Of a stretch of 35,680 bases of DNA, positions 5,139-34,659 are shown piece after piece. The stretch spans positions 1 through 35,680 of IMG/VR virus record IMGVR_UViG_3300043395_000082. One strand, 5' to 3'. Each line of letters starts with the position of its first letter. Positions within the stretch are counted from its first letter, which is position 1. Below the pieces are notes generated by a model. It was not told the origin of the DNA, searched no databases, and saw nothing but the letters and a program-made list of their open reading frames with translations. Origin of the DNA: a virus. The translations under genes and the position numbers were made by a program.

Positions 5139-5139
5139 A

Positions 5140-7594: not shown

Positions 7595-7614
7595 TAAACA
7601 TAAAATTTAATTAA

Positions 7615-10156: not shown

Positions 10157-10167
10157 TTGTAAATAAT

Positions 10168-10199
10168 GGAGGGGCCGATTGGCCTCTCCTTTACCTTTA
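10168..10199 (+). terminator. Hairpin after the capsid gene (terminator or transcript-end processing site)
   Basis: GGAGGGGCC (10168-10176), loop GATT, GGCCTCTCC (10181-10189), then TTTACCTTT. The 9-bp stem is complete if one G-U pair is allowed, which works only in plus-strand RNA. The T run is interrupted by two Cs, so partial termination or mRNA 3'-end protection is more likely than full termination. Confidence 0.6.
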
Positions 10200-10212
10200 A
10201 ATAAACAAGACA

Positions 10213-10437: not shown

Positions 10438-10443
10438 TTAACT

Positions 10444-10473
10444 GAGGGGGTCGCTGTGACTCCCTCTATTTTC
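10444..10473 (+). terminator. Hairpin after the small basic gene
   Basis: GAGGGGGTC (10444-10452), loop GCTGT, GACTCCCTC (10458-10466), then TATTTTC. This is a 9-bp stem with one G-U pair in plus-strand RNA. The stem design resembles the hairpin at 10168. The weak T run again suggests partial termination. Confidence 0.6.
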
Positions 10474-10492
10474 AAATTTTAAATTTAATCAA

Positions 10493-11242: not shown

Positions 11243-11282
11243 CGTAGTTTTTCATGGTTCACATAGATAGATGATTAAAAAT

Positions 11283-11311
11283 GGGGGTGTAATAACACCC
11301 TCTTTTTTTTT
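11283..11311 (+). terminator. Intrinsic terminator between capsid and neck gene groups
   Basis: GGGGGTGT (11283-11290), loop AATA, ACACCCTC (11295-11302), then nine Ts (11303-11311). The 8-bp stem has one G-U pair. Of the three hairpins in this region it is the only one with a long uninterrupted T run, so it is the best true rho-independent terminator in the window. A TATATTTG box follows at once. Confidence 0.8.
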
Positions 11312-11314
11312 GTT

Positions 11315-11322
11315 TATATTTG
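11315..11322 (+). promoter_or_regulatory. Candidate -7 element (TAnnTTTG) before the neck genes
   Basis: TATATTTG matches the Bacteroidota -7 consensus and lies four bases after the terminator's T run, 13 bases before the ATG at 11336. No TTG is found 17-23 bases upstream, so only half of a promoter is visible. Confidence 0.3.
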
Positions 11323-11335
11323 TAAAAAGACTAGA

Positions 11336-12079: not shown

Positions 12080-12081
12080 TC

Positions 12082-19861: not shown

Positions 19862-20827
19862 ATGGGACTAGCGGCATCATCTATAGTTGCAATAGCCACT
19901 TCGCTTGGTAGCGCAGGTGCATCATTTACTCAGGCTGGAAAGCAAGCAGGTCTAGCTAAGAAAGCTAAGGCTGAAGGAGAACGAGCATTTGAAGAGGCTA
20001 AGAAAAATCTTGAAGTAAACTTTTACGAACAACTTGGTATACAAAAAGAAGCCTATGAGTTAGAACGTGAAGCTATGTTGTCTTCAGGTGCTCAAGCTAT
20101 TCAGGCTGGAGTAGAAAGCGAAAGAGGTGCTGCTGCCACTGCTGGTAGGGTTCAACTTGCACAGCAACAAGGACAAAGAGAAATTGCTGGAGCAATGGCT
20201 AAAGAACTAGCTGGCCTTGAATCGCTTACTGCTGAGGAGCAGTCAAGACTTGCTGCACAAAGAGCTGGGCTTGATTTAGCAAGAGCCGAAGGATCTCAAG
20301 CAGCAGCAGCGCAAGCTCAAGCCATTCAGGCTGCGGCTATAACTGGAGGATTCCAAGGATTAGGAAGTGCAGCACAATCATATCTTCAAGGAAAAGAATT
20401 GTTCAAAGCAGAGCAAGGACAAAAAGAATTAGAGAGACTGAAGAAAGAATACGAAAGAGCTGTAGCTGATGGTATTATAGGTAGTAAATTTAAAGATCCA
20501 TCAACTGGTCAAGCTCTTCCATTTAACTTAGCAATATCAAAATTGTCAGGATACGGGACAGATTTGTCTAAGGTACCTACCATGGATGATTTAAGAGCTA
20601 CTGATTTCTTGACTGATAGAGCAGAATTACTTAAGTCAATAAGAGAGAATGCTTTTAATGAAGGCGGTGCGTTTAGAGAGAACATTGCACAATCAGCAAA
20701 TCCAGCATCTAGACAGAACTTAAATCAATTGAAGAATTTTCAAGTTCAAACATTTACTCCAAAATTCTCTCCTTTAGATCAAATAAATTATTTCAGCTCT
20801 AATCCTTTTACAGTTTCAGGAAAATAA
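19862..20827 (+). CDS. Internal virion (DNA-ejection) protein, T7 gp14-like position
   Basis: A 321-aa protein. The N-terminus (MGLAASSIVAIATSLGSAGA) is a small hydrophobic, glycine/alanine-rich helix of the kind that inserts in membranes. A long helical Ala/Gln/Glu-rich region follows (residues 25-200; AQAIQAGVESERGAAATAGR), with a second small hydrophobic patch (AAAITGGFQGLGSAAQSYLQ). The C-terminus is loop-rich. This matches the layout of T7 gp14 and equivalent ejection proteins, which form the outer-membrane part of the DNA conduit on infection. It starts one base after the GNAT-like gene and is followed by the second ejection-protein candidate three bases later. Confidence 0.65.
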   Translation: MGLAASSIVAIATSLGSAGASFTQAGKQAGLAKKAKAEGERAFEEAKKNLEVNFYEQLGIQKEAYELEREAMLSSGAQAIQAGVESERGAAATAGRVQLAQQQGQREIAGAMAKELAGLESLTAEEQSRLAAQRAGLDLARAEGSQAAAAQAQAIQAAAITGGFQGLGSAAQSYLQGKELFKAEQGQKELERLKKEYERAVADGIIGSKFKDPSTGQALPFNLAISKLSGYGTDLSKVPTMDDLRATDFLTDRAELLKSIRENAFNEGGAFRENIAQSANPASRQNLNQLKNFQVQTFTPKFSPLDQINYFSSNPFTVSGK

Positions 20828-20830
20828 AGA

Positions 20831-22294
20831 ATGGAGACTTACTACAAATACGCTGAAAGGCAAGCAGATAGTTTTGTTAACTGGGGAGAAATCGGTAAGA
20901 ATCTTACTGACATGCTTCAGAAAGAATTTCAAATCCGGGAGGAAAAGAAAGATGCTATTGACAAAGCCACCAGAGAGAGTTTAAAAACTTTATCTGATCA
21001 ACCGACTGGGCAACATGAGGGACTAAACACATGGTCTTTAAAGTATGCAGATGAAGCTAGAGAGGCTATTCTTTTGCAGGATAGACTGTTGAAAAAGGGA
21101 GCATTAAAACTAAAGGACTATACCATTATGAGACAGAATCTCAACGATGGTACAGATGAATTATATTCAGCTATAAAGGGGTATCAAGATATCTTTAAAG
21201 TAAAGATGGATCGCCTTAGAAGTAGTGACCCAAAAAATAAATCTCAGCAGATTGAAGTAGACTTAATGTCTATGATAGAAGGGTTCTCAGATTTTTCTAA
21301 GTCAAAAGTTTTAATTGACCCAACAAACTTTACAGTAAGCGTTGGTATTATGGAGCCTGACCCAGAAAATGAGGGTGTAATGAGGGTAAGTAAAAATGTA
21401 GCTACTACAAGTTTCCTTAAGAAGATTCAGGATACAAGGTTTGATTACTTTGATTCTGAGGCAGCGGCTACTGAGACTGCTAAAAGCATAGGTAGTTATT
21501 TAACTACTGTAATTGGACAGGGGACTGGTTTAGAAGGACAAACTCTTACTGTGGAGAATGCATTAGCAAAGCCTGCTACTGAAAAATATATTCGCCAAAA
21601 AATAAAGTCTTACTTAAGCAATCCATATCATGTAACTTCAATACTAACTGAGGATCTTATAGAAGATGACAAAGAAAATCAATACGTGTCTAGTATATCT
21701 GGCAAGGAAGGCAATGTAATCAAATATGTTTTTGATGGTCAATCAAATCTTCCAATTGCTGTTCCAACTGAAGAGCAAATGAAGGCTGCTGAAGACTACA
21801 TGTATGGAATGATTGTTGCTAAACTTGACTACAAACAAATAGAAGGAAGGTATTCAAAGCCTCAACCAAATATTGTAAAGGCTGATGAAACTCCTAGTGG
21901 AGGCGCAAGTTACGCTGAGAATATCCAGAAGTTCAAGGCTAAATTAAAAGCAGTTAAGCCTAAGAGAGACAACTATGTGTTTACTGGTACTGAAGCAATA
22001 ACTGTTGGAAATATTGAAAATCTTTTGAGCTCAGATCCAGCAACAATTGGTAAATTTAAAGTGAGTTCAGCAAATAATGTAGTAACAATAACTGATAATG
22101 ATAATGTTGTTATTGGATCTTATGACTTATCAAGAACTCAGGGAACAGGTGACTTGAAGCAAAGAGAAAGATATTTAGATGACTTACTTGATAAGGTAAC
22201 AAATTACTCAATCTCTAAAGACCCAACAATTATTGGTGTATCTTTGATGACATCACCGCAACAGCAGTCGGGAGGAGTTGGATCAAAATATTAA
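20831..22294 (+). CDS. Internal virion protein, T7 gp15-like position
   Basis: A 487-aa, mostly helical, charged protein with no enzyme motif that I recognise. The start METYYKYAERQADSFVNWGE resembles the N-termini of other internal virion proteins. Residues 20-130 are coiled-coil-like (LQKEFQIREEKKDAIDKATR; AREAILLQDRLLKKGALKLK). Residues 360-480 are more mixed and end in a Gln/Gly-rich tail (SPQQQSGGVGSKY). Together with the preceding gene and the giant gene downstream it forms a three-gene set, as in T7 gp14-gp15-gp16, that would be packed in the head and ejected with DNA. The assignment rests on position and composition. Confidence 0.55.
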   Translation: METYYKYAERQADSFVNWGEIGKNLTDMLQKEFQIREEKKDAIDKATRESLKTLSDQPTGQHEGLNTWSLKYADEAREAILLQDRLLKKGALKLKDYTIMRQNLNDGTDELYSAIKGYQDIFKVKMDRLRSSDPKNKSQQIEVDLMSMIEGFSDFSKSKVLIDPTNFTVSVGIMEPDPENEGVMRVSKNVATTSFLKKIQDTRFDYFDSEAAATETAKSIGSYLTTVIGQGTGLEGQTLTVENALAKPATEKYIRQKIKSYLSNPYHVTSILTEDLIEDDKENQYVSSISGKEGNVIKYVFDGQSNLPIAVPTEEQMKAAEDYMYGMIVAKLDYKQIEGRYSKPQPNIVKADETPSGGASYAENIQKFKAKLKAVKPKRDNYVFTGTEAITVGNIENLLSSDPATIGKFKVSSANNVVTITDNDNVVIGSYDLSRTQGTGDLKQRERYLDDLLDKVTNYSISKDPTIIGVSLMTSPQQQSGGVGSKY

Positions 22295-22307: not shown

Positions 22308-25300
22308 ATGAACGAACAGGCGATTATTGACTCATACAATTTATTTGTACAAAGTGGGTATAAGAAATCATTACAAGAGTTCAAGCAATTGCTTGCGTCT
22401 AATCCTGAGGCAGTTAATGATTCATATGGATTGTTCCAACAGAATGGATATAGAAAATCATTAGATGAATATAAAACCCTTATGGGTATTGGCACTACTG
22501 TAGAAAGTCCTGTAGCAGAAGAGCCAAAAAAAAAAGAAGCTACGGTTTCACCATTTGTGGCTGGTGGATCGGGGCTTACGAAGTTTGACCCACGTACTGG
22601 TCAGGTTGTACAGGATTCTCCAGCGTTTGCTCAGCCTAAAGAGAGAGACTTTAGTGGCCTAGAAGTTAAAGTACAAGATGAAAAGATATTAACTAAGCCA
22701 GCAAGACAAGATAAGCCTTTAGTAGCTGCTGAATCTACTAAAGTTGTTACTCCTAAAGTTGATAAGGTTGAAGAGCCTGAGAAGAAAGGTGGTAAGAGTT
22801 ATCTTGAAAACATAGCCCTAAACCTTGGTCTTGGTGCGTCATACGCTAATGAAGCAGTTGCGTCTATACCTGAGAGTATTGTAAATCTTTTAGCTATCCC
22901 ACAGAACTACATTGCCGAGAAGACTGGCTTGCCCATTGGCGTAACGGCTGAAGGTATAAAAAAGTCTTGGGGTATCACTAACCCATTACTTGACTACGTT
23001 AAGGAAGACCAAAAGATATTAAGCGGTGAAGTATCTAAGTTCATTGCAGATAGGTATGAGGACCCTAGTATTGTAGGAAATTTTGAAAAGGGTAACTATA
23101 AAGAAGGGTTTGAACTTTTAGGGTCAGCCATTACTCAATCTGTTCCAGTTAGTATTGGTCTAATGATAGGAGGAGCATATACTTCTCCAGGAAAACTAGC
23201 AACTGTAGCAACATTAGGATTTACAGAAGATCAGAGAGAAGAGCTGGCGGCTATGGACCCAACAATGTCTGAAGCCGAGAAGACTCTTAAAGCTGCTGGT
23301 ATGGCAGGTGCTGAATCAGTGTTCTCGTCAATAGGTACTGCCACTATAGGTAGGGTTTACAGAGACATAGCAAAGAGAGAAGGGGCAGAGGCTGCTAAAG
23401 GAATACTTAGAAATGGTCTTATAGAAACTTACAAGAAAGCTATAGAGAAGACTGGTGTAGTAGCTGGTTTTGTTGGAGAAGGAATTGAAGAGGCAGCTAC
23501 TCAGATTACTCAAAATGTTATATCAGGCAAACCTGCTTTTGAAGGAGCGGCTGATGCTTTTGTTACAGGTGCTGGAAGTGGTGTGGTATTTACTGCACCT
23601 ATATCAGCAGTTAATGCAAAGAGATATGTTGATAACAAAGTACAATCCTATCAAACAAAAGGAAAGGTAACTGAAATTTTAAAGGATAAAGGTACTGACA
23701 TTTCTCAGGTATACAATGTACCTGTATCTTCCGAGATAACTACTAGCCAGCTAGAGATTAGCAATCTTCCAAACTCTAGAAACTTACTGGTTAATAATTT
23801 AAAGAAGAGTGTATCTAATGGTCAAATCACAGATGCTGATGCTAAGCAATCTTTATTTGTGTTTGATAAAATACAGCAGGTATCTAATGCTGTTAAAGAT
23901 TTAGACGTAAGTCAAGAGGACAAAGCAAGAGTTGCTACTCTATTAAGACAGAGAGATGATCTTAGAACTAAGATTCAGAATAAGGATGATGTATTAGTCG
24001 TACAAGAGAAGCGACAGATTGAAGATATTAATAATCAGATTCAAGAGATAATCACTAAACCAAAAGAAGATGCCATTCAAGAGCAAGCAGCAGGTCAAGT
24101 ACCTGTACAGCCAGGAACCGGAGTTAGCCAAGAAGTGGCGCAAGGAGAACCCAAAGCAGAACCTCAAGGCGTTGCCCAAGAAGGTCAAGTCCAAGAAGGG
24201 AAGTTAACTCAAGAAATTAAAAGAACACTTCCAGAACAAACTAACCTGACTGATAAAGAGAAACAAGTTCTTAATAATTTAAGTAGCACTGAGAACATAA
24301 GTCTAGATGAGGCTGAGAAAATTTTCAGAGGGTACAAGGTAAATGATTATTCTAAGTTTAATAATTTGCTTAGAAAAGGATTGCCTATAACTAAGGAGAA
24401 CCTTATTAAAGAGGGTGTTAAAAACGAAGAACTAGCTACCTTATTAGAGGAGGACTATAATAATTTATCAAGAGTATTATCTAATTCTACATTTTCTCCT
24501 CAAGAGCAGACAACTCTTTATAGAGTAATGTTCGATGGAAAGAATATACTAGATGAATATAATGAAGGAGATATAATATCAGACAAATCTTTTGCATCTA
24601 CAACCATTGATGAGAACTGGGTCAAGGACGCTAATCGTCCAATGATAAAATTTGAATTAGAGAAAGGTGATCAGATAAATGGATTCTATGCAGGTGGTGT
24701 TGAGAAAGAATTTATAATTAATAAAGACACTGAGTTTGTTGTAAAAAAGAAAGAGGTTATCGATGGCAATACCGTTCTTACAGTAAGTCTACCAAAACCT
24801 CAAGGCGTTACCCAAGAAGGTCAAGTCCAAGAAGAAGTAGTCCCTACTACACCTATAGATGTAGAAGGGGAGGTATCCTTACTTGAGAAATTACTTGCGC
24901 AGGAGGAGACTGCACCTACTAAAGCCGCTGGTATATCAATATCAAGCGAGACTGATGTTGAGGATTTGAGAAATAGAACTCAGTCAAGGTCTCAGCAGGC
25001 CACAACAAAAGAAGAGAAGGAATCTGCCAATACAAGGGTAAAGATTATTGACACAGCGAAGAAGGCTATCAATACATTGAAGTCTGTATTCCCTGATGTT
25101 GATATTGTAATCCATGATGATGAGGGTAGCTACAATTCTGCTATGTCAGAAATAGATGGCGTTGCTGGATCTAGAGGAAACTTCTTTATTGACACAACTC
25201 CTGATGGTAAGACAACAGGAAGGATTGACATCAATCTATCTAAGGCTAACTCTAGAACAGTAGCCCACGAGATTGCTCATGGTATATTACTAAAGACCTT

Positions 25301-28300
25301 TGGAGATAATAAGAACTTGTTCAATGATTTCAGAACAAGAATGTCTAAGGTTCTTAAAGGTGATGTGAACCAGCAGCTAAATGATTTTGCTAATCAGTAT
25401 GTTGACCCTGCTACAGGTGAGTTGCTAGATGTAAACCACGAAGAGTTCTTGGCTGAACTAACTGGTATACTAGAGCAGCAAGAGGCTAACGTATCTGTTA
25501 CTACAATGCAGAAGGTTGCTGCTTTGATTAATGAGTTCGTGTCTAAGATTACTGGTGGTAAGTTCAAACCATTTGAGGATACTAAGAATACCAAAGATGT
25601 AGTTGACTTCTTTAACACCATATCTAGTGCGATAAGAGAAGGTGGTGAAATACAAGAGCTAAATGGAGGAGGAGAGGTAGGTACATTTAACTTTACTTCA
25701 AGAAGTAGTTTAGATGTAAAAGAAGCTCCAAGTGTAGCGAATGACAGCAGGACTTTCATTAGAGATTTAGTCGAGGATGTCGACATGGTAGACTTCAATG
25801 GAAGAAAGTTTGTCACCAACATGTATGACTACACTACTGCCGGAACTACTGACTTGGGAAATGGTCTAACTATAAATATGCTTGGAGGTAAGAACTACGT
25901 TCCATACATGATGTCCCTACAGGATAAGAAGATAGGAGACGTTTCTAATCTAGCAGCATTCAATACCAAAGCCCAGGCAGAATCCTTTGCACGAAATGCA
26001 ATAAAAGGAGATGCATCATTGTTTGCTCCACACTCAGGTACATTGTCTGAGTCTTGGCAGTTTCAGCAACACACGTTTGCTGAACTTGTTAACTTGATTT
26101 TAGATAAAAAGATAATGAGTGATGCTGAATTGATTGATTTATTTAATAAAACAATCAGTTCAAAAGCTAGTAAAAAGGCTTTTAACGCATTTAAATCTAA
26201 GTATGGGAAAGATATATCTAACTTTGATTCATTTAAGAATGATCCTAAAAAAATAGTAGAGCTATTAGATGTTAAAAATAATTATTCTCCAAACTTAAGA
26301 AAGGCTCTAAACAATGCTATATCAGCAGACAAGACTTTCCAAAAAGCGATAGGTGTAAAAAACAAAGAAGAGTTTTTCAAAAGAATAATGGATCCTCTCA
26401 ATGATGGTGTTCAGGGTGGGGAGATAATTAACGTAGTTGAATTTGATCCTAAAACATTTCAAATAGTTCAAACAAAGCCAGGAGCCATAGACCATCACCC
26501 ATCATTTGGATGGACTATTCTTTCCAAGATAAATGGAATATATCAGCCTACTAAATTTTACCAATCAAGTAATGTAACTGAAAGTTATGTTAAGTATAAT
26601 AAATCTGGTGAGCAAGTATCAAGAAAGGCTGAAGAGAGTAACTTTGAGAAGAAGAATGTATCATCAAGTGCAGGTTCAATTCCAAAAGTTGCAGAATTTG
26701 TAGAGCCATCAGAAACAGAAGCACCAGCTACAAAGCGAATATCAAGATCTCAAATAAATGATGCGTTATCAAAGGCATCTGGAACAACTCAGGTTGCAAC
26801 AACAACAGGTAGTTATGTTAAGGCTGCAAATATTCTAAAAAATAGTGGAGTAGAGGGCGACATATTAGACTATGGGGCTGGCCTAGGATTAGGTTCAGAT
26901 GCAATGAGTGATGTTCTTGGTAAGACTGTTGATTCATTAGAAGTAAATCCAGAAAGATGGAAAGGGAAAACTCCAGTAAAGTATACTGATGCTAATCAAA
27001 TAGACAAGAAGTATGATGGAATAGTATCATTGAATGTGGTCAATGTAGTTCCTAAATCAATAAGGGACTTTATTATAAAGGACATATTTAATAATCTTAA
27101 AGATGGTGGCACAGCTATAATAAGCTCAAGAGGGTTTAAAGGTGATATTGATCAAGCTAAAAATTTTGTACCTGGTCCTGAAGAAAAGAGTTACATAATT
27201 AAAAGAAAACAGGATGGTGAAATTATTGATGTATTCCAGAAGGGGTATGATGGTAATGAACTAGTTGAATATGTTCAAGATTTATTGGGGGACTCTGCCG
27301 AAGTAGTTTCAAATAATACATTTGGAAATAAAGGTGTTATAATAAAGAAGTCTTCTGGAGTAAAAAGTAGGGCTCAATTGGCTGCTAATGATGCACAGAG
27401 AATCGTGAATCTAGGGCGTGCTAATGGCTTATCTGAGCAGGCGATATCAACTGTACTACAGAAACGTGGCTTCACTCAAGAGGCCATTGATACTGCATTG
27501 GGTAAGGTTGAGCCTGCTGCTAAGAAGGTTGAGGTGACTGAGGAGTTTGCTCCGGGTTACGACAGAGTTCTCAATAACATGTTCGGTGAAGAAGGTGTGG
27601 TAGCTAAGTCACGTAAGCGTGGTGTATCTAAGGAAGGTATACTAGAAAATGCTATTAACTACTTGCGTGGCACCAAGGTATACGAGAACGCTACTGAGAT
27701 TCAGCGTGATGCCATGGAACGCAATGTTAACAAGGAACTAGGTAAGCGTGAGAAGGATGCGCCTAGTGCGGAGAAGGTAATAGGCAAGCCTAAGAAGAAG
27801 CAGGTCACTATCGATGAGATGGCTGCACTTAAGGACCAGATTAAACTGGAGGCTCGTGCTGCTCGTGAAGCCAAGGGAGACTTGAACACCAAGCGAAAGG
27901 CATTGGCTGCTAGAATTATTGCTGCCAGAAGGAAGGGTACAATTACTGCTGTTCAGGCTAGAGCTCTAGTGAATAGAATCAGTAAAGTGAATCTTGATAA
28001 TCCTATCATGGTAGATAGGTTACTAGAATATACTGATAAGGTATTCGATGATGCCAACTATGCTGCTGATATGGCTGAACTAAGAAAGTTACAGAAGCAG
28101 GCTAAGTCTAGAAACCACACCTCAATGACTAACGTAGTCAATCAATTTACATCTATTAATCCTGAGGATATCCCAATAGATAGAATACAAGACTACAAGG
28201 AAGCACTTGACTTCTTGAATACAAGGACTCCATTCTACGGTAACATGAATGAAATCTTTGATGAGATGTTGTCATATAAGGTAGCTGAAAAGTTTGATGC

Positions 28301-31300
28301 TGTTAAGACAAAGGATGCGCTTATGGATAAGTACAAGAGCATCATTGCAAATGAGGTCAAAACCGTTGAAGACTATGTGGCCCTAATTAAAGACCTCAAT
28401 GCATTTAAAAGAAAAGCATTTCAACTTCTACAGAATGATGCTATCACTCAAGAAGAATATGACGACTTGATTAATGGTGCTGGAGAAACTCAAGCAGTTA
28501 TAGAAAAGAAGTTTGCAGAACAAATTGCTAAGATAAAGAAAGACTTGATTGCTGAAATAAAAAAGCAGCGACCAAGGGTAAGCAGAGACTTCAGCAAGGA
28601 GGAGAATGATTTGATTCGCAAGTACTTAGAACTTAGTGATGCTGACCTTGAGAGTCTATCTCCTGAGGACCTATTCATCTTGAATGATTTGCTAGATAAC
28701 ATAAGCAATGGAGAGATTGACAACTTCAGGTTCAATGAGATTATATCCAAGGCATATACAAGTGATGGTGCCAACAGATTGGCTAAGCAAATTGATGATT
28801 CAAAGTTTGATATGACTCCTGAAGAAGGAATGAAAGAACTATCTGAATATGAAAGTTCATTCTGGGAAGGTTTACTTGGTATGGGAAGAGCTAAGTCAGG
28901 AGCACTACAGAAGTTCGTGGTATCTGTGTTCAACAGAGCCATTGCTTCCTATGAGAACTTGACTAGAGATGGATACAATGAATTCTCAAAACTTAAGAAT
29001 AAGTATAAGATGTCTGATAAGGACATGCATAAGTTAGGTATCCTAACCACATACCTTCAGGAGTACATGGCTCAGTTTGACCCTAAGAATGAAGGCATAA
29101 AAGATATTGGTAAGCGTGACTGGTTCAAAGAAATATTGAGCAGCAAGTCAATGAGAAGCAAGTACTCTTCTGGTAAACCATCTATCCTAAAAGTTATTGG
29201 ACTAGGTAAATCTGAGATAGATATCATTGAGGAAATCTGGAACAGCCTACCAAAAGATAAGGATGGTAACGTAGATCCTAAGGCTGTATACGATAGTTAT
29301 ATGGCTAACGATGGGAAGTTCTTTACTAAGAATGAGAAAGGATTCTTTGATGATGTAATGGCTTACAAGACATCTGAGATTACACCGAAGCAGAAGTTTG
29401 CTAATGAGATTAATGGTGCTTCATTCAAGGAGATTCCATTTCACATGATGCGAGTTAGACTTGATGGAGGTAAGACTCAGATTACACCAACTGCATCTTC
29501 TGATAATGGTGTAGTACGTATTAAGGCTGGTACAGGGAAGGAGAGAGTTAGTGAAGCTGTTGGTCCTATCATGACTAACTTCGAGAAACTATTCATAAAA
29601 AACCTTGAGCAGACTGGTCGTGACTACTTCTTATCTGGTGCACTTAAGGATATCAATAACACTTTGTCAGGTGCTAAGAAAAAGATTAATCCAGACAAGA
29701 TGCCTCTTCTTGATACCATATCTGGTGCATTATCCGAGGCATTAGGATATGAGTTTGATAGAACTCAGAGCAACTTTATATTTAGAAACTTGCTATCAGC
29801 GAGAGCGGCCATTACATTGTTAAGGCCAATTAGAACTGTTGCTGAACTTGGATCAACACTTTTATCTTACCCTGTTAGAGCTAAAACTTTATCAGGATAC
29901 AAGTCATTGTTCGGTGAACAAGGGGCGATGAAAAAACTTCTTGAGTTTACAAATAGTCCTATGTTGTTAAGAGATAATATAAACAAGGCTATTGATATCA
30001 ATGATGGAAGGATTGAGCCACAAAGCAGATTTACTAAGGCTACAAATTATCTATCTGGTCTGCCAGAAAGAACAATGATGATTACCTCATGGATGCCAAC
30101 ATTCAAGTCTGAGTTTAAGAACATCACTGGTATAGACTTTGATATAAATAAGTTTAATAATAGCGAAGCGTACAGAGAAAAGTATGGAAAGGCTATTAGG
30201 GAATCATCAGCAGCGGCTGATGCTCAGACTGAGAAGATTATTGGACCAACCACTAAGGCAGGACAGAGAAGAGAGGTTAGGATAGCACCAAAGGTATTGG
30301 CAAATATTATAGGTCTTGAAGGAACTGTATCTAAGAACACTGCTGCTGGTCAGATACTTGGCTTCTTTAGTAACTATCCTTACCGAGAGGTGACTGAATT
30401 CATAAATGGATTTAAGGAGGCCGCTGAAGTTATTAAAGATGAAGGAGCATTGAGTTCATTAAGCCAGTTACAGAAGCCGCTGGGTATTGCATTGAACGTA
30501 GCTGCTTATGGATTTCTTGGAACTCTAACCTATGCAGGACAGCTTATATTGCTTGGAGATGAGGATGATGAGGAGAGAGGAATTAAGATGCTCAAGGATA
30601 TAATGACTACAGAAGGTTTATTAAATGAGCTTGCGTCCAATGCTATATCGCTTGCTGGTAGTAAGTATGCAGCTGGAGGTAAGGCTTTACTTCAGTTAGC
30701 TGCTACTATAGCAATTGAATCTACAGATGATGAGGAGCAGAAGGCCAAGATAAAGAAGTTACTAAAGGATAGTGTGTTTGTTGATCCACTTCCAGTTGAA
30801 CAGGCTGCTAAGTTTGGAGGAAGAGAGAAAGCCTTGAGTGCTATAGGAATGTACATCCCTCAGTTTGTAATACTAGCAGATAGATACGCTGACTTTATTG
30901 GAGGTATTAATGAATTTGAGGCCATATACGACAAGGTAGAAAGTAAAGGTGTAGAGAGTTTAACTCAAGACGAGGGTACAAAAATCCTGGCTTTGAACAC
31001 AATTATAAACGCATCTCAGATATTACTAAACGTATTTGGTGGCACATCTTTGCCTGAATACAACAACATCAAGACTTACATGAATAAACTAAAAGAAGAG
31101 GCTGGAGTTGCTGATGTGTACAAGGGAGAGGAACCTGCTAAGAAAAAGTCATCCGGAGGCGGAGGTGGTAGTAGAGGTGGAGGAATGAACAAGACCGACC
31201 TGAAAAGATATAATCGTGAACTATACGATCAATTGTATGGAGAGGGGTCGGCTACTTACGAGATAGAGCAGGAGGTAAAAGCCTTCGAGAAGGAGCAACG

Positions 31301-31349
31301 AGAGTATAAAAAGAAAATCAAGGATCAGGTGTATGGGGGCAAGGACTAA
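22308..31349 (+). CDS. Giant ejected 'polyvalent' protein: ADP-ribosyltransferase, Zn-peptidase and SAM-methyltransferase domains
   Basis: A 3013-aa protein in the place of T7 gp16. Visible parts in order: two 30-residue tandem repeats (7-59; NDSYGLFQQNGYRKSLDEYK is the second); helical region with weakly hydrophobic stretches (about 150-460); an ART domain (about 640-825; LYR739V, FAS764TT, E799KE801); a zinc peptidase HEIAH (987-991) with acidic ligand candidates E1045/E1046/E1050; a conserved unnamed domain with DHHPSFGW (1395-1402); a methyltransferase (DYGAGLGLG from 1521, LEVNP at 1544-1548, YDGIVSLN from 1569); a UBA-like helical segment (about 1690-1735); long coiled coils; and a C-terminal region with hydrophobic helices (about 2725-2752) and a Gly-rich basic tail. 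This is the layout of polyvalent proteins described in phages and conjugative elements. Targets are unknown. It is probably injected with the DNA. Confidence 0.8.
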   Translation: MNEQAIIDSYNLFVQSGYKKSLQEFKQLLASNPEAVNDSYGLFQQNGYRKSLDEYKTLMGIGTTVESPVAEEPKKKEATVSPFVAGGSGLTKFDPRTGQVVQDSPAFAQPKERDFSGLEVKVQDEKILTKPARQDKPLVAAESTKVVTPKVDKVEEPEKKGGKSYLENIALNLGLGASYANEAVASIPESIVNLLAIPQNYIAEKTGLPIGVTAEGIKKSWGITNPLLDYVKEDQKILSGEVSKFIADRYEDPSIVGNFEKGNYKEGFELLGSAITQSVPVSIGLMIGGAYTSPGKLATVATLGFTEDQREELAAMDPTMSEAEKTLKAAGMAGAESVFSSIGTATIGRVYRDIAKREGAEAAKGILRNGLIETYKKAIEKTGVVAGFVGEGIEEAATQITQNVISGKPAFEGAADAFVTGAGSGVVFTAPISAVNAKRYVDNKVQSYQTKGKVTEILKDKGTDISQVYNVPVSSEITTSQLEISNLPNSRNLLVNNLKKSVSNGQITDADAKQSLFVFDKIQQVSNAVKDLDVSQEDKARVATLLRQRDDLRTKIQNKDDVLVVQEKRQIEDINNQIQEIITKPKEDAIQEQAAGQVPVQPGTGVSQEVAQGEPKAEPQGVAQEGQVQEGKLTQEIKRTLPEQTNLTDKEKQVLNNLSSTENISLDEAEKIFRGYKVNDYSKFNNLLRKGLPITKENLIKEGVKNEELATLLEEDYNNLSRVLSNSTFSPQEQTTLYRVMFDGKNILDEYNEGDIISDKSFASTTIDENWVKDANRPMIKFELEKGDQINGFYAGGVEKEFIINKDTEFVVKKKEVIDGNTVLTVSLPKPQGVTQEGQVQEEVVPTTPIDVEGEVSLLEKLLAQEETAPTKAAGISISSETDVEDLRNRTQSRSQQATTKEEKESANTRVKIIDTAKKAINTLKSVFPDVDIVIHDDEGSYNSAMSEIDGVAGSRGNFFIDTTPDGKTTGRIDINLSKANSRTVAHEIAHGILLKTFGDNKNLFNDFRTRMSKVLKGDVNQQLNDFANQYVDPATGELLDVNHEEFLAELTGILEQQEANVSVTTMQKVAALINEFVSKITGGKFKPFEDTKNTKDVVDFFNTISSAIREGGEIQELNGGGEVGTFNFTSRSSLDVKEAPSVANDSRTFIRDLVEDVDMVDFNGRKFVTNMYDYTTAGTTDLGNGLTINMLGGKNYVPYMMSLQDKKIGDVSNLAAFNTKAQAESFARNAIKGDASLFAPHSGTLSESWQFQQHTFAELVNLILDKKIMSDAELIDLFNKTISSKASKKAFNAFKSKYGKDISNFDSFKNDPKKIVELLDVKNNYSPNLRKALNNAISADKTFQKAIGVKNKEEFFKRIMDPLNDGVQGGEIINVVEFDPKTFQIVQTKPGAIDHHPSFGWTILSKINGIYQPTKFYQSSNVTESYVKYNKSGEQVSRKAEESNFEKKNVSSSAGSIPKVAEFVEPSETEAPATKRISRSQINDALSKASGTTQVATTTGSYVKAANILKNSGVEGDILDYGAGLGLGSDAMSDVLGKTVDSLEVNPERWKGKTPVKYTDANQIDKKYDGIVSLNVVNVVPKSIRDFIIKDIFNNLKDGGTAIISSRGFKGDIDQAKNFVPGPEEKSYIIKRKQDGEIIDVFQKGYDGNELVEYVQDLLGDSAEVVSNNTFGNKGVIIKKSSGVKSRAQLAANDAQRIVNLGRANGLSEQAISTVLQKRGFTQEAIDTALGKVEPAAKKVEVTEEFAPGYDRVLNNMFGEEGVVAKSRKRGVSKEGILENAINYLRGTKVYENATEIQRDAMERNVNKELGKREKDAPSAEKVIGKPKKKQVTIDEMAALKDQIKLEARAAREAKGDLNTKRKALAARIIAARRKGTITAVQARALVNRISKVNLDNPIMVDRLLEYTDKVFDDANYAADMAELRKLQKQAKSRNHTSMTNVVNQFTSINPEDIPIDRIQDYKEALDFLNTRTPFYGNMNEIFDEMLSYKVAEKFDAVKTKDALMDKYKSIIANEVKTVEDYVALIKDLNAFKRKAFQLLQNDAITQEEYDDLINGAGETQAVIEKKFAEQIAKIKKDLIAEIKKQRPRVSRDFSKEENDLIRKYLELSDADLESLSPEDLFILNDLLDNISNGEIDNFRFNEIISKAYTSDGANRLAKQIDDSKFDMTPEEGMKELSEYESSFWEGLLGMGRAKSGALQKFVVSVFNRAIASYENLTRDGYNEFSKLKNKYKMSDKDMHKLGILTTYLQEYMAQFDPKNEGIKDIGKRDWFKEILSSKSMRSKYSSGKPSILKVIGLGKSEIDIIEEIWNSLPKDKDGNVDPKAVYDSYMANDGKFFTKNEKGFFDDVMAYKTSEITPKQKFANEINGASFKEIPFHMMRVRLDGGKTQITPTASSDNGVVRIKAGTGKERVSEAVGPIMTNFEKLFIKNLEQTGRDYFLSGALKDINNTLSGAKKKINPDKMPLLDTISGALSEALGYEFDRTQSNFIFRNLLSARAAITLLRPIRTVAELGSTLLSYPVRAKTLSGYKSLFGEQGAMKKLLEFTNSPMLLRDNINKAIDINDGRIEPQSRFTKATNYLSGLPERTMMITSWMPTFKSEFKNITGIDFDINKFNNSEAYREKYGKAIRESSAAADAQTEKIIGPTTKAGQRREVRIAPKVLANIIGLEGTVSKNTAAGQILGFFSNYPYREVTEFINGFKEAAEVIKDEGALSSLSQLQKPLGIALNVAAYGFLGTLTYAGQLILLGDEDDEERGIKMLKDIMTTEGLLNELASNAISLAGSKYAAGGKALLQLAATIAIESTDDEEQKAKIKKLLKDSVFVDPLPVEQAAKFGGREKALSAIGMYIPQFVILADRYADFIGGINEFEAIYDKVESKGVESLTQDEGTKILALNTIINASQILLNVFGGTSLPEYNNIKTYMNKLKEEAGVADVYKGEEPAKKKSSGGGGGSRGGGMNKTDLKRYNRELYDQLYGEGSATYEIEQEVKAFEKEQREYKKKIKDQVYGGKD
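24161..24198 (+). repeat. 38-bp direct repeat, copy 1, upstream of the ART domain
   Basis: Begins ACCTCAAGGCGTTGCCCAAG and continues to the G at 24198. It differs from copy 2 at one base (G against A). Copies are 636 bp apart, an exact multiple of three, and encode the linker phrase PQGVAQEGQVQE. It lies in a low-complexity Q/E/G/V linker. Confidence 0.9.
24797..24834 (+). repeat. 38-bp direct repeat, copy 2, downstream of the ART domain
   Basis: Begins ACCTCAAGGCGTTACCCAAG and encodes PQGVTQEGQVQE. Homologous recombination between the two copies would remove 212 codons in frame, namely the complete ADP-ribosyltransferase cassette. Confidence 0.9.
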
Positions 31350-31356
31350 AAGTCCT
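31342..31356. terminator. Small bidirectional hairpin over the convergent stop codons
   Basis: AGGACT, loop AAA, AGTCCT. The plus gene stops with TAA at 31347-31349 and the minus gene stops with TAG read from 31348-31346. The stem is only 6 bp and no long T run follows on either strand, so termination strength is uncertain. Confidence 0.3.
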
Positions 31357-31537
31357 CCTCATATTCTATGGTCTTGATGATATCTCTCAAATCTTTTATC
31401 AGGGACTTAACGTCTTCCTTAACTGATTCGTACTCACGGTCTACTAGCTTCTCGTAGATCATGGCAACGCTAGCGTGGAAGCCTTCTGTAGTGAAGGCTA
31501 TCCTTGCTGCTCTTTCTTCTTGGACTCTTCGATCCAT
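31346..31537 (-). CDS. Small helical protein at the end of the early module (63 aa)
   Basis: Sequence MDRRVQEERAARIAFTTEGF, then a helical segment and an acidic end (IKTIEYEEDF). It starts 40 bases inside the 3' end of the DnaA-IV-like gene and ends overlapping the stop of the giant virion gene by four bases. I recognise no family. The composition (many E, K, D, R; helices without a hydrophobic core segment) suggests a small regulatory or partner protein. A purely accidental open frame is possible but less likely because it continues the overlapped minus-strand gene series with a normal ATG. Confidence 0.5.
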   Translation of the reverse strand: MDRRVQEERAARIAFTTEGFHASVAMIYEKLVDREYESVKEDVKSLIKDLRDIIKTIEYEEDF

Positions 31538-31977
31538 TCTTTCTCTGTTATAAAATTGTATACTGGCTTCATTCTCTCCTTGAGTAATCTAAGTTCATGC
31601 TTAAGTGCCTCATTCTCTTGTACTAATCTACCAACAATATTGTAGGAATCAACAGGTTCATCTCTAAATTTATTCATGATTACCATTTCTTTGCACTTAA
31701 GATACAAACTTCTGAATTTTGAATCGAGTTCAATTGTGTCTTGAAACTTCTTTAGGTAGTACTCAGCAGTGTATCTGCTCTTCTTCATACTAAGCGCAAT
31801 GCTCTCTACATGAAGGCCAATGTCCTTGAGTAGCGAAGCTAATATCATTCTGGCTTCGACCTCACCTCGGTACCTTGTAACGGATAGAGTCCGTTCTCCA
31901 GTCACCATTTCAACGATGTTGCGTAGGTGTTCAATCTTCTTTCTCTCTTCCATAAAAGAGTTCTGCTTTGATTCCAT
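31498..31977 (-). CDS. DnaA domain IV-like DNA-binding protein
   Basis: A 159-aa protein. Residues about 22-80 (IVEMVTGERTLSVTRYRGEV, then EARMILASLLKDIGLHVESI, then ALSMKKSRYTAEYYLKKFQD) follow the plan of the DnaA C-terminal domain: 'R.R..v.aR.i...ll......l..Ia....r..yt...y..kk.'. This is the part that binds DnaA boxes. There is no AAA+ ATPase domain. A coiled coil follows (about 118-145; VQENEALKHELRLLKERMKP). The usual DHT of DnaA is replaced by SRYTAEYY. It could bind the repeat block just upstream of this gene pair as origin or operator, or act against host DnaA. The first 16 codons overlap the nuclease gene. A second ATG (residue 9) is an alternative start. Confidence 0.6.
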   Translation of the reverse strand: MESKQNSFMEERKKIEHLRNIVEMVTGERTLSVTRYRGEVEARMILASLLKDIGLHVESIALSMKKSRYTAEYYLKKFQDTIELDSKFRSLYLKCKEMVIMNKFRDEPVDSYNIVGRLVQENEALKHELRLLKERMKPVYNFITEKEWIEESKKKEQQG

Positions 31978-32185
31978 GTTTCTGTAGTTCTTTGATTCTA
32001 TATTCCTGTAGTTTACTTGGCTTACCTGTAGGTCTCTTGACTTCGTAGAACTCTACATCAGACCCTTTAGGTATGGCGATAAGGTCAGGGATACCATTCT
32101 TGTTGGTCTTAATCAACTTGATTACATAGTACCCCTGATCCTCAAGGTCTTTCATTAACTTACTTTGTATCTGCTGCTCGGTCAC
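31931..32185 (-). CDS. VRR-NUC nuclease
   Basis: An 84-aa protein, the usual size of a minimal phage VRR-NUC. Motifs: an N-terminal EQQIQSKLMKDL helix; NGIPDLIAI with D34; FYEVKRPTGKPSKLQ with E48 and K50 (the D...ExK PD-(D/E)XK core) and Q60 after it; then a final IKELQKHGIKAELFYGR. The family cuts branched or flap DNA, and phage members are linked with replication and recombination. The start is a GTG at 32185; there is no in-frame ATG upstream before a TAG at 32216-32218. The upstream codons hold the TTGATT repeats. It is the first gene after the repeat block. Confidence 0.85.
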   Translation of the reverse strand: MTEQQIQSKLMKDLEDQGYYVIKLIKTNKNGIPDLIAIPKGSDVEFYEVKRPTGKPSKLQEYRIKELQKHGIKAELFYGREKED

Positions 32186-32212
32186 TTGATTGTAGTTTTG
32201 ATTGTCTTGATT
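32186..32212. repeat. TTGATT direct repeats (3 copies, 12/9 spacing)
   Basis: TTGATT at 32186, 32198 and 32207 on the plus strand, immediately upstream of the nuclease start. The spacing of 12 and 9 matches that of the neighbouring TTACCGCC family. Confidence 0.65.
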
Positions 32213-32218
32213 TTTCTA

Positions 32219-32262
32219 TACCCTAAACATACCCTATTTATACCCTAAGGGTACCCTATTTA
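32219..32262. repeat. Four 11-bp iterons TACCCTANNNN
   Basis: TACCCTA starts at 32219, 32230, 32241 and 32252, exactly 11 bp apart. Units 2 and 4 are identical (TACCCTATTTA). Units 3 and 4 create a dyad AGGGTACCCT at 32248-32257 and the inverted repeat TACCCT-A-AGGGTA at 32241-32253. Eleven-bp spacing puts every copy on about the same face of the helix. Candidate protein-binding array of an origin or operator. Confidence 0.85.
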
Positions 32263-32317
32263 TTACCGACATTACCGCCAGGATTACCGCCGTTACCGCC
32301 AACATTACCGCCGTTAC
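32263..32317. repeat. TTACCGCC direct repeats with alternating 9/12-bp spacing
   Basis: TTACCGCC or near copies start at 32263 (TTACCGAC), 32272, 32284, 32293, 32305 and 32314 (TTAC only). Spacings are 9, 12, 9, 12, 9, so every second unit is 21 bp apart, about two helical turns. The rightmost copies touch the stop codon of the 67-aa gene. The block is adjacent to the 11-bp iterons. Confidence 0.85.
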
Positions 32318-32517
32318 TTTTTGTACGGCCTGAAGTTCTTCTTTGCTATCTGCAATGCCTCTGCTTCAGTGTCAGCAACACCTGTGTCGTAGGTGAACCC
32401 ATCGCTGTACCAGTACAGCCAGTCACCTCCAATAGATTGGAACACGCCTATTGATTCAACAGGAACTTCCCTCATGTAGAATAGGCTCTTTGCTTGTTGT
32501 CCTAGATAGATGTTCAT
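32314..32517 (-). CDS. Small early protein of unknown function (67 aa)
   Basis: Sequence starts MNIYLGQQAKSLFYMREVPV and ends IAKKNFRPYKK. The aromatic middle (GGDWLYWYSDGFTYDTG) suggests a small beta sheet followed by an AEALQIAKKNF helix. It overlaps the preceding gene by four bases. I know no function. It is the last gene before the repeat block, and its stop TAA lies at the edge of the TTACCGCC repeats. Confidence 0.6.
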   Translation of the reverse strand: MNIYLGQQAKSLFYMREVPVESIGVFQSIGGDWLYWYSDGFTYDTGVADTEAEALQIAKKNFRPYKK

Positions 32518-32705
32518 TTGACTATCTCTTTTAGTTGATTATAAATATTCATTTGATTCTCTCCCCAGTACATGTCGCACTTTCCATCCTTGATGGGTGA
32601 GTTTGTGAAGTACGCCTGCCTGTACTCATTAGGTTTTGCTGTGAACCTGTAACAGGATTCTTTGTGGGGACAATCTGTCCCTACGCACATCGTGATATCA
32701 GCCAT
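32514..32705 (-). CDS. Small cysteine protein, probable zinc ribbon (63 aa)
   Basis: MADITMCVGTDCPHKESCYR gives C7, C12 and C18, and a fourth Cys lies in GKCDMYWGENQ (C43). The spacing suggests one metal-binding site. The phrase 'iTmC.g..CP.k..CYRf.A.p...rQ.YF..sP' is one I associate with small proteins of Bacteroidota phages and mobile elements; no function is known to me. It overlaps the previous gene by eight bases and the next by four, so the set is probably translated as a unit. Confidence 0.65.
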   Translation of the reverse strand: MADITMCVGTDCPHKESCYRFTAKPNEYRQAYFTNSPIKDGKCDMYWGENQMNIYNQLKEIVK

Positions 32706-33066
32706 GGGTTATAAGATATTTAAGACATTCTAACTCTGCTTCTTCGTAACTATTGTACAAGTTCTCAGAGAGAGTCATCGCACCAAATGAGTTAACGATT
32801 CGGTAGGTAAACTTTGGGTGTCTGTTTATGTCCACCTGAATCTCTTGATACAACTCACGTTCTCTGAACCATCGGAACGCCTGCTGATACAAGGGAGCAG
32901 CTACCATCTCGCTGTTACTATTGGTATGAATAGTCACCAGTGTAACCTTAGTTGCGCTAGGTCTCAGACCTGAGCCACCGACTTGATACCATGCTAAGCA
33001 TGGCTCATCAAAGCCCTGCACCTTAAGTGATAGAGCCTGTTCGTAGGGAATGAACTCATTTTCCAT
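32698..33066 (-). CDS. Conserved phage/mobile-element protein of unknown function (122 aa)
   Basis: Contains FIPYEQALSLKVQGFDEPCL near the N-terminus, APLYQQAFRWFRERELYQEI in the middle, and YNSYEEAELECLKYLI at the end. These three phrases recur together in a family that I recall as widespread in Bacteroidota phages and mobile elements, usually in small-gene clusters. The fold appears alpha+beta. No catalytic motif is seen. It starts three bases after the previous gene's stop. Confidence 0.7.
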   Translation of the reverse strand: MENEFIPYEQALSLKVQGFDEPCLAWYQVGGSGLRPSATKVTLVTIHTNSNSEMVAAPLYQQAFRWFRERELYQEIQVDINRHPKFTYRIVNSFGAMTLSENLYNSYEEAELECLKYLITHG

Positions 33067-33069
33067 TGA

Positions 33070-33258
33070 TTAATAATTTAAAACTTGTTTTTTAACTTCC
33101 ATCCAATATTTCATGCCATCATTGATGTCCTTGTCAAAAGGAAACTTTGCTTTCATTTTTGAATAATGGTCAAGAGATTCTTGTATATCCTTGATTATTA
33201 AATTCTCATTACCCTTGTAATAGTTTACTAGTTCATTTGCTTTCTGAATTGCATCCAT
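33070..33258 (-). CDS. Small helical protein (62 aa)
   Basis: MDAIQKANELVNYYKGNENL, followed by a second helix (IQESLDHYSKMKAKF) and a final one (INDGMKYWMEVKKQVLNY). No family known to me. It is more AT-rich than the helicase genes upstream. It has the strong A-rich leader AAACAAACAAACAG directly before its ATG, which supports a genuine, well-translated gene. Confidence 0.6.
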   Translation of the reverse strand: MDAIQKANELVNYYKGNENLIIKDIQESLDHYSKMKAKFPFDKDINDGMKYWMEVKKQVLNY

Positions 33259-33270
33259 CTGTTTGTTTGT
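33259..33270 (-). promoter_or_regulatory. A-rich translation leader (AAACAAACAAACAG) of the 62-aa gene
   Basis: On the minus strand the bases between the helicase stop and the ATG read AAACAAACAAACAG (the first As belong to the stop codon). It is nearly identical to the leader at 578-590 on the other strand. Confidence 0.45.
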
Positions 33271-34659
33271 TTAGTTGTTAAAGAAATCTTTTTTAAAGTG
33301 ATTAATAGTATAGTCCTTCTTTTTAATTACCGCCTTGTAGATGTCATGCTCAATACCACCCTTACTGAATACCCAGTACACGTGGTTGAATGACCTCTCC
33401 TTGGTTGTCATCCTGTCCCTGCTCTGCCAGTAGCTGGTAGCACTGAAGTCAATGTTGTAGTACACCAACGCCACTGCATTGCGTAGGCTGATGCCCTCTC
33501 TTCCACTGACAATCTGCAACGCTATGCTCTTGTCAGTCTGGTCAAACACTGCTAGGTCAGTAGTCAACTGGTCCCCATACACCTGCTTCAGGGCAGACAG
33601 CTCCTCCTTGAACTTGTAGAAGATACCTATCTTCTGAGTACAGAAGTTGTCGTAAATGAACTGAGCCTTCGTGTTGTCCAGCACCATGCTGTTGCCACTC
33701 TCAAACTTAATCGTTCCACTGCACAACTGGTGTACCTTCATCATCAACTTGACTGGAGTATCTGCAAGGATCACCTCCTGCTTCCCCTCCACAACTAGGT
33801 CCCTCTCAAGCTTTCGTATCAGACTCTTGACCGAGTCCTTTATCTCTACCTCTAGGATCTCCTCAGTAACTGATGACACGAACCCTGCCTCCTTCTGTGA
33901 GAAGCTTATCATGTAAGGCCGCATTGCTTCGATGATGCTGTCCATCCCTTGGCTGTAGTCATTTACGTACAGGCCATTGATGTTCTTCTGCTTCACCTTG
34001 ACATGCACATCAGCGAACCTGTAGAAGTTAGGGAACTGCCGGAACGGATTGTTAGGTATGCCGTACACCTGATGGTACATCTGAGAGTAGCTCTCCGGAG
34101 TTGGCGTACCTGATAGCAGTATCACCTTGGCCTTGTGCTTAGCAATGGCGTGTCGAATCATTACAGCCCGATTGCTGGGCTTTGGGAATGCACCTATGCT
34201 GTGAGACTCATCGATAATAATTAAGTCAAATTTGAGGCTGTCTACCACGTGGTGGAGGCTCTCGTAGTTGACCACCTTTATGGTGAAGCTAGGCTTTAGC
34301 GTATCGTAGTCCTTCTCGATACTGCCTATGGCCTTCTTCTTGGTAACGAACAGCACTGACTTAGCACCGCATTCATCTGCGATACCTAGGCTGGTCAGTG
34401 TCTTACCTGTCCGTACCTCCATTGCTAGGAACACGAAGCCATACTCATTTAGGATCCTTGACCCTTGGTCAATTATATCTTTCTGGTATGGTCTAAACTC
34501 CATGCTCTTTGATCCGTAGTGGGTGAAGCTATTCTTAATTCGTTCCAGTGCATCGGCATCTGAGTAACTGCTCTTTGATAATACATCGTATAGTAAACCG
34601 CAGTACTCCAACATATTCCTGTCAGAGTACGCTGGTATCCGTTCAATTATCTTGCTCAT
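33271..34659 (-). CDS. SF2 (Snf2/DEAD-like) helicase
   Basis: A 462-aa protein with a complete motif set. Q-motif-like FRPYQKDI (55-62); motif I MEVRTGKTLTS (80-90, K86, T87); motif II DESH (150-153); motif III SGTPTP (183-188); motif V SGREGISLRN (385-394); motif VI WQSRDRM (411-417). The pattern 'RPYQ...mEvRTGKT...DEsH..k..........sGTP' is that of phage Snf2-related helicases that act in replication or recombination. It overlaps the upstream SF3 gene by 17 bases, so co-expression is likely. No nuclease or primase domain is fused. DNA substrate polarity cannot be inferred. Confidence 0.9.
   Translation of the reverse strand: MSKIIERIPAYSDRNMLEYCGLLYDVLSKSSYSDADALERIKNSFTHYGSKSMEFRPYQKDIIDQGSRILNEYGFVFLAMEVRTGKTLTSLGIADECGAKSVLFVTKKKAIGSIEKDYDTLKPSFTIKVVNYESLHHVVDSLKFDLIIIDESHSIGAFPKPSNRAVMIRHAIAKHKAKVILLSGTPTPESYSQMYHQVYGIPNNPFRQFPNFYRFADVHVKVKQKNINGLYVNDYSQGMDSIIEAMRPYMISFSQKEAGFVSSVTEEILEVEIKDSVKSLIRKLERDLVVEGKQEVILADTPVKLMMKVHQLCSGTIKFESGNSMVLDNTKAQFIYDNFCTQKIGIFYKFKEELSALKQVYGDQLTTDLAVFDQTDKSIALQIVSGREGISLRNAVALVYYNIDFSATSYWQSRDRMTTKERSFNHVYWVFSKGGIEHDIYKAVIKKKDYTINHFKKDFFNN

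What the first reader, a model, noticed from the sequence alone, without database searches (positions are those of the whole stretch)
22308..31349. 3013-aa ejected protein carries three different enzyme domains
One gene holds an ART-like domain (R739, S764, E799xE801), an HEIAH zinc peptidase, and a DYGAGLGLG methyltransferase, between helical and hydrophobic regions. It sits in the T7 gp16 position, after two ejection-protein-like genes. This fits the polyvalent-protein idea (Iyer, Aravind and colleagues): an injected multi-tool against host defence or host machinery. The order ART, peptidase, DHHPSFGW domain, MTase, UBA-like segment is, to my knowledge, not functionally described. The peptidase could also cut the polypeptide into separate effectors after injection.
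Basis: partly seen in the sequence, partly recalled or inferred. Interest (0 to 1): 0.85.

Follow-up and report, generated by a model that had tools for sequence, protein, structure and literature searches.

The report
Swappable-cargo phage protein with hidden gene
A virus of bacteria makes a giant protein, probably sent into the host cell with its DNA, whose middle holds interchangeable enzyme modules, and just before that cargo zone the same DNA also encodes a small, strongly conserved second protein in another reading frame.

Summary
The 3013-aa ORF is real. Its ART domain is confirmed (PF03496, above the gathering score; R739, S764, E799xE801 as stated). It also holds an anthrax-lethal-factor-like zinc-peptidase domain with an invariant active site, and a class I methyltransferase family that is almost confined to phages. 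It fits the 'polyvalent protein' class of Iyer et al. 2017, but its ART is R-S-E type, which they did not find in genuine polyvalent proteins.

The enzyme order is not a fixed design. Across 56 related giant genes the region between one N-terminal landmark and the C-terminal core runs from 20 to 2575 aa. Backbones 92-96% identical carry different cargos; one relative is naturally empty. The ART cassette is flanked by a 42-nt direct repeat. The peptidase is common, not universal (28/56).

The landmark is dual-coding. In the +1 frame it encodes a 45-aa ORF (window 24070-24207). Among 46 distinct copies, 62% of codon differences are silent in that frame and 4% in the giant's frame, so the hidden gene is the constrained one.

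Injection, processing, enzyme activity and translation of the nested ORF are inferred. Novelty: new variant of a known kind, with a probable unannotated overlapping gene.

The parts
22308..31349 (+). giant virion/ejection-type polyvalent protein gene, 3013 aa
   Evidence: homologues in elemo phages annotated 'structural protein'
22308..22721 (+). N-terminal repeats (aa 1-138), conserved in many relatives
23754..24188 (+). NB block (aa 483-627), leads into the dual-coding landmark
24070..24207 (+). nested ORF in the +1 frame, 45 aa: MPFKSKQQVKYLYSQEPELAKKWRKENPKQNLKALPKKVKSKKGS*
   Evidence: silent-change share 61.8% in this frame vs 3.6% in the giant frame
24157..24198 (+). direct repeat, upstream copy (3' end of nested ORF), flanks the ART cassette
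   Evidence: 95-97% identity; none in 100 codon shuffles
24793..24834 (+). direct repeat, downstream copy, 636 bp away, in frame
24195..24797 (+). bay A cargo: R-S-E ADP-ribosyltransferase domain (aa 630-830)
   Evidence: PF03496 above gathering score; residues checked
24864..25517 (+). zinc peptidase domain, HEIAH at aa 987-991, third ligand E1046
25593..26699 (+). DHHPSFGW domain (aa 1096-1464), weak YTH/ASCH-like fold resemblance with helical insert
26760..27350 (+). bay B cargo: class I methyltransferase of a phage-associated family
27519..31346 (+). C-terminal core (aa 1738-3013), conserved chassis
19862..20827 (+). upstream virion structural gene (gp14-like position)
   Evidence: PHROG_13764, E 3e-14
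20831..22294 (+). upstream gene (gp15-like position), 13 bp before the giant gene

Best explanation
This is the ejected polyvalent protein of a podovirus related to Elemovirus, Pachyviridae and Pervagoviridae. A fixed N-terminal part and C-terminal core form a virion/ejection chassis. The stretch between them is a cargo zone in which phages exchange enzyme modules (here ART, lethal-factor-like peptidase, DHHPSFGW domain, methyltransferase). The protein is probably made late, packaged, and injected with the DNA, so that the modules act on the new host at once. At the upstream edge of the cargo zone lies a nested gene in the +1 frame encoding a small basic phage protein; purifying selection on that frame keeps a ~135-nt block nearly identical in DNA between very different giant genes. 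That block is therefore a natural homology anchor for cassette exchange, and the ART cassette was inserted at its 3' end, leaving a 42-nt direct repeat. Shown: domains, cassette replacement, the empty chassis, the repeat, and +1-frame constraint. Inferred: packaging, injection, enzymatic activity, translation of the nested ORF, recombination through the block. The peptidase may release cargos or be a cargo itself.
For: Domains. Cassette replacement at 92-96% backbone identity: L001/L062 and L041/L042/L043. Identity reversal: L001 PEP 90%, MTase 81%; distant backbones PEP 26-54%, MTase 53-74%. Variable zone 20-2575 aa in 56 genes with one empty chassis. PolyVal/LPD domains in relatives: ART-PolyVal 2e-16, LPD23 1e-10, Kinase-PolyVal 3e-12, GNAT 1e-9. 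42-nt repeat around the ART. DNA island: 48 of 53 contigs match the window gene around the landmark only over that block. Nested ORF. Structural annotation and synteny of relatives.
Against: No virion proteomics read here; 'structural protein' is annotation in relatives. No enzymatic or translation data. The ART was seen in this contig only (1 of 50 records), so its junctions rest on one assembly. Recombination through the block is inferred from repeats and homology, not observed. No strong membrane segment supports a gp16-like membrane role.
Confidence: 0.7

Rival explanations
1. The zinc peptidase is a dedicated processing enzyme that cuts the polypeptide into separate effectors before or after injection.
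For: Active-site residues invariant in 24 relatives; lethal-factor-like fold; zincins are the hub domain of polyvalent proteins and autoproteolysis has been proposed, e.g. for P1 DdrB (PMC5512222).
Against: Only 28 of 56 giant genes have a HExxH between landmark and C-core. The ten shortest cargo zones have none, but by length alone only about 1.2 would be expected, so this is not informative. N4 vRNAP, with a zincin domain, is packaged unprocessed (PMC5512222).
Confidence: 0.35
2. The landmark's DNA conservation reflects a recombination site or RNA element, and the +1 ORF is not translated.
For: Sharp 135-nt island and direct repeat at the ART cassette. The homology-anchor role is compatible with this.
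Against: Substitutions are distributed as in a protein gene in the +1 frame: 61.8% silent there, 3.6% in frame 0; ATG to stop kept in diverged copies whose DNA differs widely; stand-alone CDS relative URG13095.1 in a head-gene region of another phage.
Confidence: 0.12
3. The enzyme-like domains are inactive structural filler of a large virion protein.
For: The chassis exists without any cargo.
Against: Catalytic residues of peptidase and ART are retained; the methyltransferase keeps its SAM motif across backbones; cargo classes are mostly enzymes or effector-type domains.
Confidence: 0.1
4. The mosaicism is partly an artefact of metagenome assembly.
For: All close relatives are metagenomic contigs; the window's ART is unique and bounded by a 42-nt repeat.
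Against: L062 and L063, from two different metagenomes, are identical over the swapped region; three metagenomes give L041-L043; all junctions stay in frame across 3000 codons.
Confidence: 0.06

Closest known systems
Polyvalent proteins of phages and conjugative elements (Iyer et al. 2017, PMC5512222)
   Same: several unrelated activities in one large phage protein; zincin peptidase; MTase and ART; terminase-portal phage; relatives carry ART-PolyVal, LPD23 and Kinase-PolyVal
   Different: ART is R-S-E (PF03496), reported there as absent from genuine polyvalent proteins; exchange zone bounded by a nested overlapping ORF, which I did not find described
Flavobacterium phage elemo gp18 'structural protein' (NC_055854, 3694 aa)
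   Same: syntenic giant gene, same peptidase family (25-26%), same landmark with an intact nested ORF
   Different: different cargo (DUF3293), no ART, no detectable DHHPSFGW or MTase
Coliphage N4 virion RNA polymerase gp50
   Same: giant ejected podovirus protein with a lethal-factor-like HExxH domain (VIA Z 3.4 to 9pnt)
   Different: carries an RNA polymerase; no relation by sequence found
T7 gp16 / P22 gp16 ejection proteins
   Same: third in a row of virion/ejection-type genes; mosaic evolution (PMC8954989)
   Different: no sequence match; no transglycosylase detected
Small basic phage protein (PHROG_1375, weak; URG13095.1 in phage 023Pt_psg01)
   Same: weak profile match over residues 3-43; stand-alone relative similar over its first 23 residues, in a head-gene region
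   Different: there a stand-alone CDS; here nested in +1 frame inside another gene

Membership tests
Polyvalent proteins (Iyer 2017) | two or more domains with disparate biochemical activities in one polypeptide | tested here: met
   ART above Pfam cut-off, zincin, class I MTase
Polyvalent proteins (Iyer 2017) | zincin core: three-stranded sheet, helix with HExxH, following helix with Glu | tested here: met
   predicted elements E80-85, E106-112, E118-125, H133-147 (HExxH), H194-206 with invariant E195 of the model; moderate confidence in this region
Polyvalent proteins (Iyer 2017) | encoded by a phage of the terminase-portal class, near virion genes | tested here: met
   TerL PHROG 6681 (E 1e-179), portal PHROG 6547 (E 4e-148), structural genes
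Polyvalent proteins (Iyer 2017) | ART of the H-Y-D (Tox-ART-HYD2) clade, the type reported there (typical, not defining) | tested here: not met
   R739/S764/E801, PF03496
Polyvalent proteins (Iyer 2017) | injected with the DNA | not testable with these tools
   only annotation of relatives as structural
ADP-ribosyltransferase exoenzyme (PF03496) | score over gathering threshold and R, S, E residues | tested here: met
   25.8 vs 23.4 bits, residues
Anthrax lethal-factor-like peptidase | same fold and zinc ligands | tested here: inconclusive
   VIA Z 6.3, 166 residues, 5.6 A; Foldseek has no significant hit
Class I SAM methyltransferase | Rossmann-type profile match | tested here: inconclusive
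   Methyltransf_23 26.7 vs 27 bits; PDB profile hits E 0.0045; fold not predicted
YTH/ASCH (PUA-like) domain for the DHHPSFGW region | shared fold | tested here: inconclusive
   top 18 rows are all YTH or EOLA1, best Z 5.6 (138 residues, 3.9 A), next unrelated 3.6; no Foldseek hit
T7 gp16-type ejection protein | homology and membrane-active segments | tested here: inconclusive
   position fits; no strong hydrophobic segment; no fold of the C-core predicted
PHROG_1375 (nested ORF) | profile match | tested here: inconclusive
   E 0.012, 17 bits over residues 3-43

The most novel reading that the evidence does not exclude
A small, conserved phage gene has been overprinted inside the giant ejection gene of aquatic podoviruses; because its +1 frame freezes the DNA, it acts as a built-in recombination port through which the phages swap injected effector cassettes.
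Probability: 0.4. Interest if true: 0.88.

Novelty: new variant of a known kind. Interest (0 to 1): 0.74.

Why it matters
Polyvalent proteins are known mostly as one-off architectures. Here a single syntenic chassis can be followed through dozens of phages, from empty to four or more modules, with near-identical pairs that differ by one cassette. That makes cargo function testable by comparing natural variants, and turns the chassis into a catalogue of phage effectors, many with no Pfam match. The nested ORF would be a conserved overlapping gene that annotation misses, with a codon-level signature strong enough to find others like it, and it suggests how a homology anchor for domain exchange can arise as a by-product of overlapping coding.

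Tried and rejected
A universal peptidase: HExxH was in 67 of 67 giant proteins, but these had been found through peptidase, DHH or MTase; in the set found by landmark plus C-core it is 28 of 56. Peptidase going with large cargo: not significant once length is considered. The landmark as a mere disordered linker or protease site: rejected as sufficient by the codon statistics. Host or prophage copies: no DHH relative in 84,980 genomes by pattern scan. ART relatives by direct search in viral contigs and phages: none convincing. Variation among elemo isolates: giant gene length identical in the six sampled. Whole-protein Pfam and PHROG scans missed the domains; scanning bays separately was needed. 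Foldseek against PDB gave nothing significant for peptidase+DHH or DHH alone. Papers: no virion proteomics of elemo phages was found in the held library.

Full report
What is there. The ORF at 22308-31349 (+) is 3013 codons without a stop. It follows terminase (PHROG 6681), portal (PHROG 6547) and a row of virion structural genes and starts 13 bp after the preceding gene. TerL relatives are Flavobacterium elemo phages (44%), Cellulophaga phages of Pachyviridae and Pervagoviridae (37-39%), and an uncultured podovirus from Manatee Spring (77%). In elemo phages, phi38:1 and the Manatee Spring phage a giant gene closes the same structural row. In elemo phages it is annotated 'structural protein'; I found no proteomics paper to confirm this.

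The enzyme domains. Scanned alone, the stretch 24156-25046 hits PF03496 above its gathering score (25.8 vs 23.4 bits), and R739, S764, E799 and E801 are in place. The E-x-E pair would suggest arginine as acceptor (established knowledge of R-S-E ARTs, not tested). The peptidase motif HEIAH and E1046 are invariant in 24 relatives. An AlphaFold model (pLDDT 75.9; about 60 around the zinc site) gives a zincin-like order of elements, and the second-look aligner ranks anthrax lethal factor, PPEP-3, SprT and N4 vRNAP zincin domains (Z 6.3 to 3.4). These are modest scores. The methyltransferase (aa 1485-1681) is just under the Pfam cut-off, but belongs to a family with at least 367 viral and only 7 bacterial-collection matches. 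Of 85 ORFs carrying it, 61 exceed 800 aa. In Roseobacter phage CRP-738 and Mycobacterium phage Myrna it lies inside large proteins of the head region. The DHHPSFGW region is a separate domain (pLDDT 86, pTM 0.80) whose best structural resemblances are all YTH or EOLA1/ASCH-type (Z up to 5.6); this is a lead only.

The order is not a design. Pairwise comparison of relatives showed blocks that match at 60-90% next to blocks that do not match at all. L001 and L062 are 93% and 95% identical in DNA on both sides, yet the DHHPSFGW domain (L001 about aa 1105-1463) is replaced by an unrelated segment of about 437 aa; L063, from another metagenome, equals L062. L041, L042 and L043 share about 90-95% DNA identity, but carry respectively a GNAT-like cargo after DHH, an unidentified ~280-aa cargo before DHH with nothing after it, and a third unidentified cargo. 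In close backbones the peptidase (90%) is more conserved than the MTase (81%), while in distant ones the peptidase falls to 26-54% and the MTase stays at 53-74%. That reversal is expected if the MTase moves between backbones. Other cargos found in the zone are ART-PolyVal, GNAT, LPD23 and SprT-like, LRR, L5 gp82-like, DUF3293, and Kinase-PolyVal. PF03496 occurs only in the window among 50 records.

The landmark. Just before the first cargo lies a Gln/Glu/Pro-rich segment (aa 583-626) found in 24 copies by profile, including elemo and the Manatee Spring phage, and in 80 loci by pattern. Measuring from it to the C-terminal core in 56 non-redundant genes gives a cargo zone of 20 to 2575 aa, median 925. 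L172 is a naturally empty chassis. HExxH is present in 28 of the 56. The earlier 67 of 67 was an ascertainment effect.

The cassette scar. The strongest direct repeat of the gene, 42 nt at 95% identity, brackets the ART exactly (24157-24198 and 24793-24834); none of 100 codon-shuffled genes has a repeat of 30 nt or more at 85%. Relatives without the ART have the segment once. Shorter repeats of a similar kind occur in L008 and L021.

The hidden gene. A 23-mer of the landmark occurs exactly in 53 contigs. In 48 of these the match over the landmark is an isolated island of about 135 nt ending at the same place. Where amino acids of the giant frame agree, codons agree in 98-99% of cases, against 31-74% in the other domains. 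Third codon positions are the most conserved and first the least (one row, the window, is out of register by one codon there, which lowers maxima to 0.98). Reading the +1 frame explains this: it encodes a 40-52 aa protein starting MPFKSK, in the window 24070-24207. Among 46 distinct segments the +1 frame has 87.2% amino-acid identity and 61.8% of its codon differences are silent; the giant frame has 67.0% and 3.6%. Two of 46 have an early stop in the +1 frame (after codon 29), against 37 of 46 in the third frame. In the 15 diverged copies listed the ORF is kept from ATG to stop. A profile finds 185 copies, 174 nested in ORFs of 700 aa or more, all in the +1 offset; note that many of these loci were fetched by the giant-frame pattern and some contigs are represented more than once, whereas the 53 were fetched by DNA. 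A stand-alone relative, URG13095.1, lies in the head-gene region of phage 023Pt_psg01; PHROG_1375 is a weak match. The window contig has no other full copy; the second match is the repeated 3' end beside the ART. The sequence before the ATG is A-rich rather than Shine-Dalgarno-like, which fits Bacteroidota (established knowledge).

How it most likely works. The N-terminal part and C-core package and eject the protein; the cargo zone delivers enzymes early in infection, as proposed for polyvalent proteins (PMC5512222). Constraint on the nested frame keeps one block of DNA alike in otherwise different genes, which would favour homologous exchange next to it; the ART with its repeat is the clearest trace. 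Steps not shown: packaging, injection, activity, cleavage, translation of the nested ORF, and the recombination event itself.

Comparison. It meets the class features of polyvalent proteins that could be tested. It differs in its R-S-E ART, which Iyer et al. [quoted passage not shown] a later paper notes Alt/VIP2 ARTs fused to MuF). I found no description of an overlapping gene at such a site in the papers I could search, which is no proof of absence.

Noticed in passing
L147 (MW202828.1) 741-12320, - strand: 3859-aa syntenic giant protein annotated 'reticulocyte binding/rhoptry protein' (UOF82488.1), evidently a misannotation; it has two other zincin motifs and its own nested +1 ORF.
   Followed up: partly
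L026, L028, L029 (CRP-738 gp40, HTVC103P gp52, Myrna gp97): The window's methyltransferase family is embedded in large proteins of unrelated phages, in CRP-738 and Myrna within the head-gene region; Myrna gp97 is labelled tape measure.
   Followed up: partly
L042 aa ~1254-1536; L043 aa ~1632-1878: Two cargo segments without a Pfam match (one with HDFFGHAERG, one with SYGSVAWATD) in backbones about 90% or more identical to L041.
   Followed up: no
L006 aa 2401-2627; L007 aa ~1990-2106: Cargo zones with repeats: a 20-aa 'LGNLQSIGG' repeat array (LRR-like by eye) in L006 and BspA-type LRRs in L007, possibly adhesive rather than enzymatic.
   Followed up: no
L052 and L053, about 14901: Here the small MPFKSKAQ gene is not nested but overlaps the 3' end of the giant gene, a possible intermediate between stand-alone and nested states.
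   Followed up: no
L021 aa 1430-1901: The DHHPSFGW domain is interrupted near its start by a ~450-aa insertion.
   Followed up: no
L230, L231, L237, L240: The dual-coding block also lies near the start of 400-430 aa ORFs of other viruses, so it is not confined to giant genes.
   Followed up: no
window 31346-35680: Minus-strand genes after the giant gene include a helicase-like gene (33271-34659, PHROG 62), marking the end of the structural module.
   Followed up: no
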